DNA from: Bifidobacterium pullorum subsp. gallinarum
GTDB taxonomy: Bacteria > Actinomycetota > Actinomycetes > Actinomycetales > Bifidobacteriaceae
Reading direction: 5' to 3'
Assembly: GCF_000741215.1 (NCBI RefSeq)
Contig: NZ_JGYX01000005.1
Span: forward strand, 310,001-374,000
Length of the DNA: 64,000 nt
Notes under the pieces: model-generated
The model's input: only the letters and a program-made list of their open reading frames with translations
Database searches by the model: none
Told to the model about the DNA's origin: nothing
Part shown: positions 12,619 to 40,102 of the stretch, piece by piece
How positions within the stretch are numbered: position 1 is the stretch's first letter
Layout: every line of letters begins with the position of its first letter
Program-made: the position numbers and the translations under genes

Positions 12619-12643
12619 CGGCACCCCCATATGGCGTCCCATA

Positions 12644-12757
12644 CGACAACACGGCATCCAAGCGATGTCTTCGAAGCCGTGTCGTCAAACGACCATGACG
12701 ACACGGCATCCTAGGCATCGGTCAGAAGCCGTGTTGTCATGAACGTGCGACAACACG
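12644..12757. repeat. Two tandem ~52 bp palindromic repeats plus a half unit
   Basis: Two units, each with arms CGACAACACGGCATCC / GCCGTGTCGTC and ATGACGACACGGCATCC / GCCGTGTTGTCAT around a ~17-base loop, followed by a half unit (GCGACAACACGCC). The right arms of the two loops end in GAAGCCGTGT. A related half unit, GGCCGTGTTGTCGCACG, occurs at 59780-59796 next to the damaged restriction gene. The function is unknown. Confidence 0.75.
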
Positions 12758-12820
12758 CCTTCGAACGGTCATGGGGCTAACGGTCAGGGGTTATAGGCCA
12801 TGGGCCGACGGCCTGCACAC

Positions 12821-20850: not shown

Positions 20851-23130
20851 TCAGCCCTCGCGCTTGGGCGCCTGGCTGGCCACGCGGGTCAGGCGCGGCG
20901 GGCGGCGCGTGGACACGAACAGCGGCTGCACCTCAACCAGCGGGTTGTACGGCGCCAGGCCGAACCACTTGACCGGGGAACCGGCCACGCGGCGAATCGC
21001 GTACTTGATCTGCAGCGAGAGGGCGCCACGGCCGGAGACCTTCGATTCGGGCATCAGCGCCTTGTGGATCACCACGTAGCGGATGGTGCCGATGCCCGGA
21101 TCGGCGTCAAGCTTCGGGTAGATCGACTGCTGGTTCGGCAGTTCGCCGGTCTTCTCCAGATCGTGCATGATCTGATGCAGGTAGGCCGGGATGGACTGCG
21201 AGACCTTGAAGCCGAGGCGGATGCGCACACGGAACAGGTAGTCGGTACCGAAGCTCTCGACCGAATACTCGCGGGTGAACGGCTCGTCGGTGGTCTCGAC
21301 GGCCACCGCCCACCATGCGCGGGCGCGCTTGGGGTGGTCGGCGAAGATCGAGAAGAAGATGTCCGTATCGAGACGCTTCAGATCCGGATCGCTGGTCAGG
21401 TAGACGATGTTGTCCGCGAACCGGTGGATGCGGCTGTCGTCGTGCAGCTTGTCCAGCGCGGGGAGGAAGTCCTTCGGCATCATGTGCCGACGCTGCGAGC
21501 GCTCCAGCTTGGTGCCCTCATTCCACGTGTACATGACCATGAGAATCGCCAGCGTGAGCAGCAGCGTGAACCAGCCGCCATGCAGGAACTTGGCCATCGA
21601 AGCGGCGAAGAACAGGACCTGGATCGCCAGGAACACGATGGTGAACACAACGGCGCCGAACTTGTTGCTGCGGTGCCACAGGTAGATGCCCAGCAGGATC
21701 GTGGTGGTGATCATCGTGATGGTCAGCGCCAGGCCGTAGGCCGCCGAGATATGTTCCGAATCGCGGAACAGCAGCAACACGGCCAGCGTGGCCACGCACA
21801 GCACCACGTTGACGACCGGAATGTACAGCTGGCCGCGGGTACGGGCAGGGTAACGGACCTGCAGATGCGGCATCCAGTTGAGGCCGGTGGCCTCGGAGAC
21901 CATGGTGAACGCGCCCGTAATCAGCGCCTGGGAGGCGATGATGCCGGCGGTGACCGACAGCACGACGGCCACATAGCGCACGTTCGGATCCATCATCTGG
22001 AAGAACGGGTTGATCCCCTCGGCGTCGGCCAGTTCGGGGTTGTTCTGGTTGCGCAGCATCCACGCGCCCTGGCCGAAGTAGTTGAGCACCAACGCCACCT
22101 TGATGAACGGCCAGGTGAAGTAGATGTTGCCGCGGCCCACGTGGCCCATATCCGAGTACAGCGCCTCGGCGCCGGTGGTCGAAAGGAACACGGTGCCCAT
22201 CAGTGCCAGTCCGGCGGCGTTATTCGGGCTGAACAGGAACTTGATGCCGTAGTACGGGTTGAGCGCGGCGAGCACGGACCAGTCGTTGCCGATGGCCACC
22301 ACGCCGACGATCGCCAGGAACGCGAACCAGACCATCACCACCGAACCGAAGACCTTGCCGATCGATTCGGTGCCGCGCGACTGCACGGCGAACAGGATCA
22401 CGATGATCACCGCGGTGATCATCATCGTCAAATCCTTATTCTCGGTGAACAGATGCTCCAACGCCGGCAGCGTCTTCAGGCCTTCGACGGCGGACGAGAT
22501 CGACACGGCCGGCGTCAGCACCGAGTCCGCCAGGAACGCCGCGCCGCCGAGCATGGCCGGTATGACGAGCCATGCGCCGTATTTGCGAATCAACGAGTAC
22601 AGGGCAAAGATGCCACCTTCGCCGTTGTTGTCGATGCGCATGGCGATCAGCACGTACTTGACCGTGGTGATCAGCGTGATCGACCAGAACACCAGCGACA
22701 GCATGCCCAGCACCGCCTCACGACCGGTGTTGGCCAGGCCGCCCTGACCGGACAGGAAGGTTTGCGCGGTGTACAGGGGCGAGGTGCCGATGTCGCCGTA
22801 GACGACGCCGAGCGCCACGATGGCCATGCCGAGGCTGACCTTATCCGGACTGGACTGCAGTTTGCACCACCAGCGACCGATCGGACCGCGGGCGGCGACC
22901 TTGTCGAGCTTCTCGGCCTCCTTGCGTTCGGCCTCCTGCTGCTTGGTGATTTCCTCGCGCTCTTCCTTGGTCAGCTTGCTGCGCGAGACCTTCGGCGCGT
23001 TAGTGAATGAATCCGCCCTGAGCAGGGCTTGATCGGGTTTCTCGGCATTTCGATTAGCCGGGGAGGCACCGTTACGTTTCCCGGACTGCTTCCCGTTCTG
23101 CGACGACCCACGCTGACGTGATTCCGCCAT
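20851..23130 (-). CDS. kup: KUP-family potassium uptake protein
   Basis: 759 residues. It is a K+/H+ symporter of the KUP/HAK/KT family in the plasma membrane. A hydrophilic Lys/Arg/Glu-rich N-terminus of about 85 residues precedes SLGMAIVALGVVYGDIGTSPLYT, the family signature, then about twelve membrane helices (for example GAWLVIPAMLGGAAFLADSVLTPAVSIS and GTVFLSTTGAEALYSDMGH) and a soluble C-terminal domain. GGAGGATAT lies before the ATG. A GGGGAAGGTCCCC hairpin sits in the leader, but I do not see a known riboswitch such as ydaO. Confidence 0.95.
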   Translation of the reverse strand: MAESRQRGSSQNGKQSGKRNGASPANRNAEKPDQALLRADSFTNAPKVSRSKLTKEEREEITKQQEAERKEAEKLDKVAARGPIGRWWCKLQSSPDKVSLGMAIVALGVVYGDIGTSPLYTAQTFLSGQGGLANTGREAVLGMLSLVFWSITLITTVKYVLIAMRIDNNGEGGIFALYSLIRKYGAWLVIPAMLGGAAFLADSVLTPAVSISSAVEGLKTLPALEHLFTENKDLTMMITAVIIVILFAVQSRGTESIGKVFGSVVMVWFAFLAIVGVVAIGNDWSVLAALNPYYGIKFLFSPNNAAGLALMGTVFLSTTGAEALYSDMGHVGRGNIYFTWPFIKVALVLNYFGQGAWMLRNQNNPELADAEGINPFFQMMDPNVRYVAVVLSVTAGIIASQALITGAFTMVSEATGLNWMPHLQVRYPARTRGQLYIPVVNVVLCVATLAVLLLFRDSEHISAAYGLALTITMITTTILLGIYLWHRSNKFGAVVFTIVFLAIQVLFFAASMAKFLHGGWFTLLLTLAILMVMYTWNEGTKLERSQRRHMMPKDFLPALDKLHDDSRIHRFADNIVYLTSDPDLKRLDTDIFFSIFADHPKRARAWWAVAVETTDEPFTREYSVESFGTDYLFRVRIRLGFKVSQSIPAYLHQIMHDLEKTGELPNQQSIYPKLDADPGIGTIRYVVIHKALMPESKVSGRGALSLQIKYAIRRVAGSPVKWFGLAPYNPLVEVQPLFVSTRRPPRLTRVASQAPKREG

Positions 23131-23630
23131 AGTACATATCCTCCATCGCCGGGGACCTTCCCCGCACGCGAGTTTCTCTCACTAGTACGAGAAACGGCGC
23201 CGATTTTCGACGCCGCTTCCCTGCACTGTTGGATAGTCTATACGGTTCCTTCACCATTGGCGAATCGAATTGTGAAGACGACCCCGAAAACCGTTGTCCC
23301 GCAACGTCTTCCGAGCTTCGGCAACACACCGCGCCCATATGTGAAGAAGCCGTCGGCGGGACGACGGGAACCCATCGTTCGCCGACGGCGCCTGCACCGT
23401 GGGCGTCGAAACCGACGACGCACCCGTGCGTCTGACCGCCGATTACGAGCTGGTCGTGCGCGAATCCACGCGACGGCAGACGGACACCCATCCGCCTCGC
23501 CTCGGAAAAACGTTACAAAACCACCCTCCATGTATGCGAAAAGCGTTACAACAGACATTCTCCGCTGTCGGAAAAACGTTACAATAGAGACACACCAAAC
23601 GCAGAAAAACGTTACAAGCGAGGTGACGAC
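23131..23630. other. Intergenic region between divergent kup and ATPase genes
   Basis: 500 bases. The left part is the kup promoter/leader with hairpins near 23150 and 23200. The right part is the 33-base-period repeat array (23505-23617). Open frames that span it encode only low-complexity Arg-rich or repeat-derived sequence and are not credible genes. Confidence 0.6.
23505..23617. repeat. Four 14 bp repeats at exact 33 bp spacing upstream of a DUF4143 ATPase
   Basis: GAAAAACGTTACAA occurs at 23505, 23571 and 23604, with a one-base variant (GAAAAGCGTTACAA) at 23538. Starts are exactly 33 bases apart, about three helical turns, and the 19-base spacers between them are unrelated. The last copy ends 13 bases before the ATPase start codon. 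Each copy holds the palindrome AACGTT. This looks like a cooperative operator array. Confidence 0.85.
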
Positions 23631-25013
23631 ATGCTGTACCGCAATGCATGGGAGCAGCTTGAGACTTGGCGAACCGGCAATACCGCGGCCAGAAAACATG
23701 GCCGGCACACCAAAGCCCTGATGATCACCGGCGCACGCCAGGTCGGAAAAACCACACTGGTAAGGGAATTCGGAAGCCGACATTACAAGCGCCTCGCGGA
23801 ATTGAACTTCCTCACCGACCCGGTAGCCGCCACCGTCTTCGACGGGGCCCTCGACGCGGACAGCGTGACGGCCAATCTCACCGCCTATCTCAAAACGACG
23901 CTTCCCCCTGGCGAGACACTGGTCCTCCTTGACGAGATACAAGAATGCCCACGAGCGCGAACGGCCATCAAATTCCTCGTGGAGGACGGACGATTCGATT
24001 ACGTGGAGACCGGATCGCTGCTCGGCGTGCGAACGAAGGAGGTCCCTTCATACCCGGTGGGTTTCGAGGAATCCTTCCGCATGTATCCGTTGACCTTTGC
24101 CGAATACTGTCTGGCCAACGGCGTACCCGAGTCCACCCTGACCATGCTCCGGGAGCATTTCGATACGGCCACCCCCGTCAGCGACGCCATACACAACACC
24201 ATGCAACGACTGTTCATGTCGTATATCGTGGTCGGAGGCATGCCGGAGATTGTGCAACGCTACGTCGACACCCATGACATAGCCCAGGTCGTTGATTTGC
24301 AGCACAATCTGCTCGACCTCTACCGCATCGACATCACGAAATACGCCGACAAAACCGACATGCCGAAGATACGTGCCATCTTCGACGCGGTGCCCGCACA
24401 GCTCGACGACCGCAATCGCCGGTTCGTCCTCGCGGACCTTGGCAAGACCGCACGCCAAAACCGCTACGCCAGCAGTTTCCTCTGGTTGGCCGACGCAGGC
24501 GTGACCCTGCCCTGCTACAACGTCACCGCTCCCACCGTGCCGCTGCAGGCAAACCGCAAATACAGCCTGTTCAAACTGTTCCTTGCGGATACGGGCCTGC
24601 TCTGCGCCTCGTCGATGGAGAACGTGCAGTTCGCCATTCTCAACGGTCAGATCGACATCAACATGGGGGCGATCGCGGAAAACGTGGTGGCGCAGGAACT
24701 GGCGGCGAACGGATTCGCCCTGCATTATTTCCACACCAAACGCCTGGGAGAGGTGGACTTTGTGGTGCAAACCGGGAATGCGGTGCTGCCCATCGAAGTC
24801 AAATCAGGCAGGGACTGGACTCAACATACGGCGCTGGACAACGTCATGGCCGTGCACGAGTGGAATCTTGACCGCGCACTCGTGCTATGCAACGGCAACC
24901 TCAGCCAAGACGGCAATGTGACATATCTGCCGTTGTACATGACGATGTTCATCAAGCCGCAGCAGCAGCCGGCAAGTATGCCGTTCGAGATAGACCTCAG
25001 CGCGTTGCGGTAA
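23631..25013 (+). CDS. AAA-type ATPase with DUF4143 domain
   Basis: 460 residues. The N-terminal AAA_14-type ATPase has Walker A ITGARQVGKTTLVREF (about 32-47) and Walker B LVLLDEIQECP (about 98-108) with the sensor-like VETGSLLGV. The C-terminal DUF4143 region ends in GEVDFVVQTGNAVLPIEVKSG, which has the D-x(n)-ExK look of a PD-(D/E)XK nuclease fold. Function is not established; such genes are common accessory genes of bacteria and archaea. GAGGTGAC precedes the ATG. Four regularly spaced repeats in front suggest autoregulation. A second, diverged gene of this type is at 38591-39910. Confidence 0.85.
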   Translation: MLYRNAWEQLETWRTGNTAARKHGRHTKALMITGARQVGKTTLVREFGSRHYKRLAELNFLTDPVAATVFDGALDADSVTANLTAYLKTTLPPGETLVLLDEIQECPRARTAIKFLVEDGRFDYVETGSLLGVRTKEVPSYPVGFEESFRMYPLTFAEYCLANGVPESTLTMLREHFDTATPVSDAIHNTMQRLFMSYIVVGGMPEIVQRYVDTHDIAQVVDLQHNLLDLYRIDITKYADKTDMPKIRAIFDAVPAQLDDRNRRFVLADLGKTARQNRYASSFLWLADAGVTLPCYNVTAPTVPLQANRKYSLFKLFLADTGLLCASSMENVQFAILNGQIDINMGAIAENVVAQELAANGFALHYFHTKRLGEVDFVVQTGNAVLPIEVKSGRDWTQHTALDNVMAVHEWNLDRALVLCNGNLSQDGNVTYLPLYMTMFIKPQQQPASMPFEIDLSALR

Positions 25014-38590: not shown

Positions 38591-39910
38591 TCACACGCCC
38601 AACGTATCCAGTGGAATAACCTGCACGCCATCGTCGCGACGGTATGCGAAGCTCCCCACCCCCACGATGACGGCCTTCACCGAAGCAGGACGCTGCCCCC
38701 GTTCGCTCATCTTACGATCAAGCCGCAGCACATTGGCGGCTCCCTCATCAATCTGCACGGCACCCAGCTTCACCTCGAACGCACCCCACGTCCCGTCCCG
38801 CATCTCCACGATCAGATCCACTTCCAGACCAGAATCATCCCGGTAGTGCATCACCTGCGCATCCATGGCACGGGCATATACCAGCACATCATGCGTCACC
38901 AATGATTCGAACAGGAACCCCAACGTCTTCGGATCGGTCCGCAACGTTTCCGCGGTACCGCCGATAGCCGCCGCAGCCAGCGAAGGGTCGGCCAGATGCC
39001 GTTTCATGGCCGCGCGGATGCGCACCGGCGAACGCAGGGCAGGCCGCCATGCAGGGATGTCCTCAATAACGTGCATACGGTTCAACGCACCCAGATAGTC
39101 GTCCAGCGTCGTTTCGGACAATGCAACCGGGCCGCGTCCTCCCCTGCGCTTGACACCTTTGCCCTCGGCGTCCTCGGGTAGATATTCGGCGGTATCCCGC
39201 AGCAACGCTGCCTTGCTGGACAACGTAGCCTCGTTGCGTCCCAGTGAGGTCAGCACCCGACGGATCCTCGCAGGATCACGTGCCGCGCCGTCGACCGCAG
39301 ACAAGTCGTCATCCGCCACAGCGTCAAGATAGCTGCGGGCCGTCAATTCGGCGTGGTAATCGTCCATCCCCAGATTCGCGGGCCATCCGCCGCGCACCAC
39401 AAGCGAAGCTATCCTCTCCAGGTCAAGGCTGGAATTCGCCGTATATGATTCGCCTGCGAACAATCCTCGTAACGAAACTTTGCCGCAGGACACTCCTTGC
39501 TCCATCAATGTCATGGATGACATGTGCAGCCGGGCAATGCGCCCGGCACCGCTGTGCATCGGCCGTTGCGCCGCTCTCGGCGTGGCCGATCCAGTCAGCA
39601 AGAAACGCCCGTGCCCCACACTTCTATCGCACTCGAACCGCACAGCATCCCACAATGCGGGAGCTTCCTGCCATTCGTCAATCAACCGCGGCTCCGCACC
39701 TTCCAACGCAAGCGCGGGATCAAGCTGCGCGATACTCCGGTTACGGAAGCTGCCAGAGGGGTCAGCAAGGCTGAACTGCGAAGCCGCATGCTGACTGGCC
39801 GTTGTGGTTTTGCCGCACCATTTCGGCCCCTCGATGCAGACCGCCGGAAACGCTTCAAGATAGTCACGGACAGCAGCGTCCACGATGCGCGGAACATATG
39901 ACTCCGACAT
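38591..39910 (-). CDS. Second AAA ATPase with DUF4143-type domain
   Basis: 439 residues. Walker A is IEGPKWCGKTTTASQHA near residue 24 and Walker B-like PRLIDEWQEAP near 73, with LLTGSATP as sensor. The C-terminal part contains YRDDSGLEVDLIVEMRDGTW, then GAFEVKLG, a D-x(n)-ExK pattern as in the gene at 23631. The two proteins share layout but little identity. GGGAGGGG precedes the ATG. The upstream region has a 23 bp tandem repeat (39988-40102) unlike the 33-base array of the other copy. Its function is unknown. Confidence 0.85.
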   Translation of the reverse strand: MSESYVPRIVDAAVRDYLEAFPAVCIEGPKWCGKTTTASQHAASQFSLADPSGSFRNRSIAQLDPALALEGAEPRLIDEWQEAPALWDAVRFECDRSVGHGRFLLTGSATPRAAQRPMHSGAGRIARLHMSSMTLMEQGVSCGKVSLRGLFAGESYTANSSLDLERIASLVVRGGWPANLGMDDYHAELTARSYLDAVADDDLSAVDGAARDPARIRRVLTSLGRNEATLSSKAALLRDTAEYLPEDAEGKGVKRRGGRGPVALSETTLDDYLGALNRMHVIEDIPAWRPALRSPVRIRAAMKRHLADPSLAAAAIGGTAETLRTDPKTLGFLFESLVTHDVLVYARAMDAQVMHYRDDSGLEVDLIVEMRDGTWGAFEVKLGAVQIDEGAANVLRLDRKMSERGQRPASVKAVIVGVGSFAYRRDDGVQVIPLDTLGV

Positions 39911-39987
39911 GACCCCTCCCTTGCCACGACTGCGCGCACCGGGTGGCTCCTAGCGCACATCCTACACATGAGAACAATGCAAACTTG

Positions 39988-40102
39988 CTTTTTCAACTAT
40001 TGTACTATGGTTTTTTCGAATGATTCACTAAGGCTTTTTCGAATTAGTTAGACTGGATTTTACAAATGATTCAGACCCGATTCTTCGAACATCACGGCAT
40101 AT
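39988..40102. repeat. Five degenerate 23 bp tandem repeats upstream of the second DUF4143 ATPase
   Basis: Units start at 39988, 40011, 40034, 40057 and 40080 with no gaps. Two central units read TTTTTTCGAATGATTCACTA and CTTTTTCGAATTAGTTAGAC, each followed by three bases ending in GG. The core TTTTTCGAA and the ATTCA/GTTAGA part recur in the others. The array begins 78 bases before the ATPase start, on its promoter side. Confidence 0.8.

What the first reader, a model, noticed from the sequence alone, without database searches (positions are those of the whole stretch)
23505..23617. Exact 33-base-period operator array in front of a DUF4143 ATPase
Four copies of GAAAAACGTTACAA (one with a single change) start exactly 33 bases apart, with 19-base spacers of unrelated sequence, and the last ends 13 bases before the start codon. 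Equal phasing over about three helical turns suggests a protein, perhaps the ATPase itself, binding cooperatively on one face of the DNA. The target and function of this ATPase family are poorly known, so a dedicated control array is a handle on it.
Basis: partly seen in the sequence, partly recalled or inferred. Interest (0 to 1): 0.72.

Follow-up and report, generated by a model that had tools for sequence, protein, structure and literature searches.

The report
Self-addressed repeat arrays before PDC-S01 ATPases
A widespread but unexplained bacterial and archaeal gene, listed as a candidate phage-defence gene, usually carries its own private set of evenly spaced DNA repeats just before its start; the repeat sequence changes with the protein and the spacing (two or three turns of the helix) depends on the protein's branch of the family, which points to the protein binding and controlling its own gene.

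Summary
The array is real and exact: copies start at 23505, 23538, 23571 and 23604. It is a family-wide feature. The gene (AAA_14+DUF4143; PADLOC candidate PDC-S01) has relatives in 71 of 112 genomes of the genus. In 82 of 89 examined, the best upstream repeat lag is 32-34 bp, with motifs that differ between paralogues; likewise in 66 of 78 loci found mostly outside the genus, one archaeon among them. A second protein clade uses 21-24 bp (19 of 20 strong arrays) against 31-35 bp (146 of 151) in the first. One such gene, with a 23-bp array, lies in this window (38591-39910, minus). Best explanation: each protein, predicted to be a STAND-like ATPase with a winged helix and a PD-(D/E)XK nuclease-like domain, binds its own promoter-proximal array cooperatively and autoregulates. 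Shown: the array, its co-variation with the protein, the predicted fold. Inferred: binding, repression, defence. My literature searches found no description of this.

The parts
23505..23518 (+). repeat copy 1, GAAAAACGTTACAA
23538..23551 (+). repeat copy 2, GAAAAGCGTTACAA (GAAAAACGTTACA in sister genome G064)
23571..23584 (+). repeat copy 3, GAAAAACGTTACAA
23604..23617 (+). repeat copy 4, ends 13 bases before ATG; followed by a GAGGTG stretch that looks like a Shine-Dalgarno site (by eye)
23631..25013 (+). AAA_14-DUF4143 ATPase, 460 aa, clade I, PADLOC PDC-S01: AAA 1-165, helical 166-240, winged helix 241-320, PD-(D/E)XK-like about 345-440 (domain bounds read by me from the predicted model)
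39986..40090 (-). second array in the window: five repeats of [AG]TTCGAAAAA-like sequence, period exactly 23 (13-base units at 40090-40078, 40067-40055, 40044-40032, 40021-40009, 39998-39986)
38591..39910 (-). second AAA_14-DUF4143 ATPase, 439 aa, clade II, PADLOC PDC-S01

Best explanation
The array is a private, promoter-proximal operator array of the gene it precedes. The gene product is a small STAND-like ATPase (AAA domain, helical domain, winged helix) ending in a PD-(D/E)XK nuclease-like domain. Its winged helix most likely reads the about 13-bp motif, and several protomers (or dimers) bind neighbouring repeats cooperatively on one face of the DNA. Clade I proteins need sites three turns apart (33 bp) and clade II proteins two turns apart (22-23 bp). 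Binding next to or over the promoter and start codon most likely represses the gene and keeps a potentially harmful nuclease scarce until it is needed. Motifs differ between paralogues so that units in one cell do not cross-regulate. Shown: array, phasing, co-variation of motif and period with the protein, predicted fold and conserved catalytic-type residues. Inferred: who binds, cooperativity, repression, role in defence.
For: Best lag 32-34 upstream in 82 of 89 Bifidobacterium genes. Strong arrays (score 28 or more of 39) at those lags: upstream 68 of 89, inside the gene 0 of 89, downstream 0 of 53 (4 of 53 downstream were strong at other lags); any strong score in 3 of 4450 shuffles. Mostly outside the genus 66 of 78 loci at lag 32-34; without the two Bifidobacterium rows 64 of 76. 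Summed autocorrelation, clade I (n=164): lag 33, 522 per 10,000 against 0.6 shuffled, and at 22-23 no more than shuffled; clade II (n=75): lag 23, 117 against 0. Period follows protein clade: strong arrays 146 of 151 at 31-35 in clade I, 19 of 20 at 21-24 in clade II; on a tree of 95 proteins the 20 two-turn ones are one side of a branch (1 change; 0 of 500 shuffles as low). This genome, G253 and G285 hold strong arrays of both periods, so period follows the protein, not the species (five genomes looked at). Motif similarity is flat (median 0.30-0.32) below 50% protein identity, then rises to 0.50 at 60-75% and 0.89 above 90%. Among 61 pairs of paralogues of one genome none passes motif similarity 0.6 (best 0.59). 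Arrays end a median of 35 bp before the start codon. TATAAT-like boxes are 130 against 44.9 shuffled around Bifidobacterium arrays and 122 against 68.5 elsewhere. A scan of other ORFs picked out two unlisted DUF4143 paralogues by their arrays. A DUF234 sister family gave 0 of 20 strong arrays at 21-24 or 31-35.
Against: No binding or expression data. The link to the winged helix is weak: its partial correlation with motif similarity is the highest of four protein parts (0.118, against 0.058, 0.024, -0.058) but small and not corrected for phylogeny, and among pairs 35-75% identical the nuclease part correlates slightly better (0.254 against 0.232); the column-by-column search was inconclusive. 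Part of the TATAAT excess comes from motifs that themselves contain TATAAT. No sigma-70-like promoter reaches the scan threshold in 23150-23660, so the promoter here is unknown. Exceptions: L022 irregular, L023 copies 12 bp apart, some clade II genes with dyads instead of direct repeats. In clade II 27 of 75 have a best lag outside both ranges and 5 at 31-35; its autocorrelation also shows 19 per 10,000 at 32 and 33; 5 of 202 clade I genes have best lag 21-24. Winged helices of many STAND proteins do not bind DNA (recalled).
Confidence: 0.68

Rival explanations
1. The array is bound by the ATPase but mainly as an assembly or parking platform: the ATP-driven nuclease is stored on its own array in an inactive polymer and released, or fired, when invading DNA, a transcription block or competing sites disturb it. 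Regulation of its own gene is then a by-product.
For: STAND/NLR-like predicted fold (2qen Z 16.6, 269 residues, rmsd 4.8; 2fna Z 15.6; CED-4 and plant NLRs about 14-15), conserved Walker motifs and E350/D376/E389/K391, tight spacing over 3-6 copies, PADLOC defence candidate.
Against: Arrays sit close to start codons (median 35 bp), which ordinary repression explains without a platform. No evidence on nuclease activity or storage.
Confidence: 0.17
2. Another protein, such as a host regulator or nucleoid protein, binds the array; the ATPase only happens to be downstream.
For: No binder has been shown; some arrays lie in intergenic regions shared with a divergent neighbour (9 cases).
Against: Motif and period follow the ATPase's own sequence and clade, in distant phyla and with two periods in one genome; the motif is nearly absent elsewhere in the genome; array and gene stand together as an accessory block between kup and tatD.
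Confidence: 0.08
3. The repeats act in RNA (5' leader, attenuator or CRISPR-like RNA) or are protein-coding repeats (33 = 11 codons).
For: The last copies lie so near ATG that they are probably transcribed; a + strand ORF (23257-23721) reads KNVT or KSVT at each unit.
Against: No Rfam match up to E 0.1 in 23000-24000. Periods of 32, 34, 22 and 23 break the frame; spacers are not conserved; spacing in whole helical turns is a DNA-level signature.
Confidence: 0.04
4. Chance or recent tandem duplication without function.
For: Two G031 spacers resemble each other, so some arrays grow by duplication.
Against: Motif kept while spacers differ; same period in many genes across phyla; strong scores in 3 of 4450 shuffles.
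Confidence: 0.01

Closest known systems
PDC-S01 (PADLOC phage-defence candidate; AAA_14+DUF4143)
   Same: Both window proteins match PDC-S01 models (E 1.2e-166; 2.9e-63). A 2026 survey calls it the fourth most common defence across all prokaryotes; PDCs remain unvalidated (PMC12988326, passages read).
   Different: The passages on PDC-S01 that I read mention no upstream array. None of the three held papers that name PDC-S01 was read whole (the third, PMC12733099, was seen in the listing only), and the source preprint (Payne 2024) is not held.
RptR, repressor of a defence island (PMC12255303, abstract and passages read)
   Same: Represses its own defence-island promoter by binding three direct repeats, two of which overlap the -10 box.
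   Different: RptR is a small separate dimeric regulator with a 6-bp palindromic site; here the putative binder is the ATPase-nuclease itself, motifs differ between paralogues, and spacing is 2 or 3 helical turns.
Archaeal Orc1/Cdc6 and origin boxes; plasmid iterons (recalled)
   Same: AAA+ protein with winged helix on phased direct repeats; Foldseek's first hit is Cdc6/Orc1 on origin DNA (2qby, E 9.2e-06); iterons are often about 22 bp apart (recalled).
   Different: No sign of a replication origin or plasmid was looked for or seen here; the array stands before a single gene between two chromosomal genes. TM-scores to 2qby are low (0.29 and 0.34).
STAND/NLR ATPases (SSO1545 2fna, PABY2304 2qen, CED-4, plant NLRs, EfAvs5)
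   Same: Predicted AAA-helical-winged helix arrangement, aligned over 253-286 residues for the leading STAND rows.
   Different: A C-terminal PD-(D/E)XK-like domain and a private DNA array; no sensor repeats seen in the model.

Membership tests
PDC-S01 (PADLOC) | matches the PDC-S01 profile HMMs | tested here: met
   (residues 1-448, E 1.2e-166); second gene (E 2.9e-63, best stretch 1-238)
PDC-S01 (PADLOC) | protects against phage | not testable with these tools
   [quoted passage not shown] PDCs called unvalidated
AAA_14 / DUF4143 (Pfam) | both domains above the curated cut-off | tested here: met
   (DUF4143 112.6, AAA_14 91 bits); for the second gene (89.1 and 41.8)
PD-(D/E)XK nuclease superfamily | conserved E...D...ExK constellation in an alpha/beta core | tested here: met
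   D376, E389, K391 invariant and E350 at 90% or more in 51 proteins; helix 345-359 then strands; weak YraN hits below cut-off. Naming the pattern is from recall
PD-(D/E)XK nuclease superfamily | cuts DNA | not testable with these tools
   none
STAND NTPases | AAA-helical-winged helix fold | tested here: met
   predicted model pLDDT 89.5; the leading structural neighbours are STAND proteins; same for clade II
STAND NTPases | signature motifs such as the GLPL-like motif | tested here: inconclusive
   G202-G203-M204-P205 invariant; likeness to GLPL is recalled, not scored
Autoregulatory operator array | phased repeats close to the gene's start, tracking the encoded protein | tested here: met
Autoregulatory operator array | product binds the array and changes transcription | not testable with these tools
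   none
CRISPR array | longer repeats (recalled) with acquired spacers and adjacent cas genes | tested here: not met
   14-bp repeats and 19-bp spacers; the two flanking genes are a K+ transporter and a TatD DNase; no Rfam match. cas genes further away were not looked for

The most novel reading that the evidence does not exclude
PDC-S01 is a class of DNA-addressed immune switches. Each unit is a STAND-like ATPase-nuclease plus its own phased 'address' array, spacing set by the protein clade (two or three turns) and address set by its winged helix. The array is the resting platform and sensor as well as the operator, so that disturbing it (invading DNA, blocked transcription, competing sites) releases or fires the nuclease. 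Many mutually insulated units of this kind would then be spread over bacteria and archaea.
Probability: 0.2. Interest if true: 0.95.

Novelty: new variant of a known kind. Interest (0 to 1): 0.82.

Why it matters
PDC-S01 is described as the fourth most common (candidate) defence gene in prokaryotes and as unvalidated. A private array before most of the members examined gives, from sequence alone, a predicted DNA ligand for each protein, many natural protein-site pairs with built-in orthogonal controls, and two protein clades whose geometry can be compared (two against three helical turns). It turns an unapproachable family into one testable with a gel shift and a reporter, and may also supply a toolbox of orthogonal regulators.

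Tried and rejected
General regulator site: rejected because. RNA element or coding repeat: rejected. Phage-borne arrays of the exact motif: 0 viral contigs with two spaced copies; relatives of the protein at 26 viral loci, 19 of 29 ORFs tested with best lag 32-34. Locating specificity residues: inconclusive; the top 40 columns are scattered over the domains. Exact insertion ends of the block between kup and tatD: not found; blastn of the gap matched one locus, over 61 bases at the kup end only. Solved relatives by sequence: none at E below 0.3. The score alone is a poor control: 28 or more is reached by 60 of 795 tiles of the tatD loci in GC-rich, largely coding DNA, 4 of them at lag 32-34 (one being the array of another DUF4143 paralogue) and 9 at lag 21-24; the lag together with the place before this gene is the specific part.

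Rows dropped before counts: L037 (no start found); L147 and L197. Of the 78 rows, L154 and L166 are runs of N and count as misses, and L161 and L169 are Bifidobacterium repeats of loci already held; these two were left out but are still. Ten of 30 DUF234 loci were dropped (nine without a recognised Walker motif, one short). The 89 Bifidobacterium genes are 30 best-match loci plus 60 chosen by me from the roughly 150 matches printed (a cut list), mostly in rank order. The 60 extra phylum loci were likewise chosen from the cut list; 85 ORFs were scored from those 90 loci. The spacings were measured only among lags 31-35. The tree holds 70 three-turn proteins drawn at random, all 20 two-turn and 5 other.

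Full report
Observation. Four copies of GAAAAACGTTACAA, one with A to G, start exactly 33 bases apart at 23505, 23538, 23571 and 23604 and end 13 bases before ATG 23631. In the whole genome the 13-base core with up to one mismatch is found there and once elsewhere; the reversed control pattern is found twice. So this does not look like a site of a general regulator.

The gene. The 460-aa product has AAA_14 and DUF4143 domains and matches PADLOC's defence candidate PDC-S01 along residues 1-448 (E 1.2e-166). In an alignment of 51 relatives the Walker-type residues (G34, G39, K40; D101, E102) and D376, E389, K391 are invariant and E350 nearly so: an intact ATPase and an intact PD-(D/E)XK-type site, both named from recall, the latter weakly echoed by YraN models below their cut-off. 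The AlphaFold model (pLDDT 89.5) gives AAA, helical bundle, winged helix (helices 244-259 and 276-288, strands 292-298 and 309-318) and the nuclease-like domain. Among 996 PDB chains re-aligned, the best are the archaeal ATPases 2qen (Z 16.6, 269 residues, rmsd 4.8) and 2fna (Z 15.6), then CED-4 and plant NLRs (about 14-15): the STAND arrangement. A shared fold does not show function.

Not a local oddity. Relatives (E 1e-40 or better) occur in 71 of 112 genomes of the genus, often several per genome. I took 90 loci (30 best matches and 60 more of those listed) and could set a start codon in 89. In the 260 bp upstream, the best three-copy direct-repeat lag among 16-60 was 33 in 65, 32 in 15 and 34 in 2: 82 of 89. 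A strong score (28 of 39 or more) at lag 32-34 was found upstream in 68 of 89, inside the gene in 0 of 89 and downstream in 0 of 53, where 4 were strong at other lags; any strong score came up in 3 of 4450 dinucleotide shuffles. The motifs differ widely: GAAAAACGT[TG]ACA, AAAACGTCGCA, CTATAATGTGACA, GGTTGGAAAATGCAA, GGTTTGCAAAGTG, TATATTTTGTGAA and others.

Far relatives. Of 78 scored, 66 have best lag 32-34, and 60 of these also stand out from shuffles (at most 1 of 100 as high). Two of the 78 are runs of N and two are Bifidobacterium; without the latter 64 of 76. The Treponema locus (L181) missed, and the Methanoplasma locus (L220) has best lag 33 but does not stand out from shuffles. The Methanocorpusculum gene (50% identical) has GAAAAACGTYKCA three times, 33 bp apart. 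Of 166 genes, 142 gave arrays of 3-6 copies when scanned at lags 31-35; successive spacings were 33 (272), 32 (73), 34 (6), 31 (3); the last copy ends a median 35 bp before the start codon.

Two clades, two periods. A phylum-wide search for DUF4143 (68 of 198 genomes) brought in a distant clade: scores against the Bifidobacterium model are bimodal (5-65 against 205 and above). Its arrays have a period of 22-24. Strong arrays: clade I 146 of 151 at lag 31-35 and none at 21-24; clade II 19 of 20 at 21-24. All scored genes, weak ones included: clade I 173 of 202 at 31-35, 5 at 21-24, 24 elsewhere; clade II 43 of 75 at 21-24, 5 at 31-35, 27 elsewhere. Summed autocorrelation peaks at 33, 66 and 32 in clade I (522, 250, 154 per 10,000 against at most 1.7 shuffled) and at 23, 22 and 46 in clade II (117, 47, 45 against 0), where 32 and 33 also show 19 each. 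On a tree of 95 proteins with strong arrays (all 20 two-turn, 70 three-turn drawn at random, 5 other) the two-turn proteins are one side of a branch (SH-aLRT 90, one change, 0 of 500 shuffles as low). One protein with lag 32 (L258) falls beside them, on a very long branch. Both periods occur strongly within this genome, G253 and G285, three of five genomes looked at for this. The period thus follows the protein and not the species. Both kinds stand in this window: a second DUF4143 ATPase at 38591-39910 (minus) is preceded by five repeats exactly 23 bp apart; its model (pLDDT 93.6) has the same architecture and the same two best structural neighbours.

Motif and protein. Motif similarity is flat (median 0.30-0.32) below 50% protein identity and then rises: 0.40 at 50-60%, 0.50 at 60-75%, 0.63 at 75-90%, 0.89 above 90%. 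For reverse-complement comparison it stays at 0.25-0.28, a weak hint that the orientation to the gene is kept. Of four protein parts, after holding the others fixed, the winged helix correlates best (0.118), then nuclease (0.058), helical (0.024), AAA (-0.058); but among pairs 35-75% identical the nuclease part is slightly ahead of the winged helix (0.254 against 0.232). These are small and not corrected for phylogeny; single columns were inconclusive. Among 61 pairs of fetched paralogues of one genome none passes similarity 0.6 (best 0.59) and none exceeds 60% protein identity, which fits insulation but also ordinary paralogy.

Position. TATAAT-like boxes are enriched around the arrays (130 against 44.9 shuffled in 79 Bifidobacterium genes; 122 against 68.5 in 63 others), and the one nearest ATG lies inside the array in 45 of 79 and 19 of 63, after it in 19 and 29, before it in 2 and 3, with none in 13 and 12. 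Some motifs contain TATAAT themselves, which inflates this. In this window no sigma-70-like promoter reached the scan threshold. Between kup (PF02705) and tatD (PF01026) the block array+ATPase is present only in G000 and G064 of 30 tatD loci read; 25 of the other 28 show kup next to tatD without it, and in 3 kup was not seen within reach. The unit is accessory, as expected of a defence-type gene, but no insertion ends could be set.

Controls against me. A score of 28 alone is not rare in GC-rich coding DNA: 60 of 795 tiles of the tatD loci, 4 of them at lag 32-34 (one being the array of another ATPase paralogue) and 9 at lag 21-24. In front of 135 other long ORFs in the far loci, 20 were strong and 15 at array lags, against 62 of 75 strong and 58 at lag 31-35 before the ATPases in the same call. 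Of the 15, nine share the ATPase's intergenic array, two are further DUF4143 paralogues recognised only by their arrays (L188, L189; confirmed by Pfam), two are low-complexity (L169), and two (L194, L218) remain unexplained. A sister ATPase family, DUF234, gave 0 of 20 strong arrays at 21-24 or 31-35 (10 of 30 loci dropped); by eye several have dyads near the start instead.

Mechanism. The simplest account is that each ATPase reads its own array with its winged helix, cooperatively and on one face, and thereby controls its own gene, most likely as a repressor. That the array tracks the protein is shown; that the protein binds it is inferred; that it represses is inferred from position; a defence role rests on PADLOC's guilt-by-embedding and on literature that calls it unvalidated (PMC12988326, passages read). 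The closest working parallel I found is RptR, a small separate repressor on three direct repeats of a defence-island promoter (PMC12255303, abstract and passages read).

Literature. 'DUF4143' occurs in 1 held paper (listing only), with Bifidobacterium in none, COG1373 in 7 (passages of two read), PDC-S01 in 3 (passages of two read). Wider searches (listings) brought nothing on such arrays. None of the passages seen mentions an upstream array. Many subscription papers and all preprints are not held, so this is absence from these searches only.

Noticed in passing
L006 about 1470-1735 (G031): An array of six or seven GAAAAACGTTAC-type copies runs straight into what looks, by eye, like the last fifth of a DUF4143 gene (joined near the GEIDF motif): a deletion between array and gene, or a remnant unit.
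   Followed up: partly
L023 upstream (G030): Instead of 33-bp spacing, AGAAAACGTGAC-type copies stand 12 bp apart in two groups of three; the protein is 67% identical to the window's. A natural test of spacing.
   Followed up: no
L338-L367, upstream of DUF234 ATPases: The sister family shows no phased arrays, but several have palindromic sites near the start (L344, L358, L360, L367 by eye): perhaps also self-operators, of dyad type.
   Followed up: partly
L104 and L110 (G000 C5:234426 and C5:388608): Other DUF4143 paralogues of this genome, by eye: L104 has three CCCGGGACTTT-TTGCA repeats about 33 apart, L110 has TACACTTTTTTC/GAAAAAAGTGTA inverted copies.
   Followed up: partly
L194 3517-3776: A 23-24-bp period array of CCAAATTTGGTAA-type dyads lies between the ATPase's end and the next ORF; owner unknown.
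   Followed up: no
window 12640-12760: Repeated CGACAACACGGCATCC-like units in both orientations (lag 52) in front of a terminator-like hairpin seen by eye.
   Followed up: no
L334 (G088), on the other side of tatD: Another DUF4143 paralogue with its own array (CTGCCAGTTTTACC-type units) lies beyond tatD: such units reached this neighbourhood at least twice in the genus.
   Followed up: no
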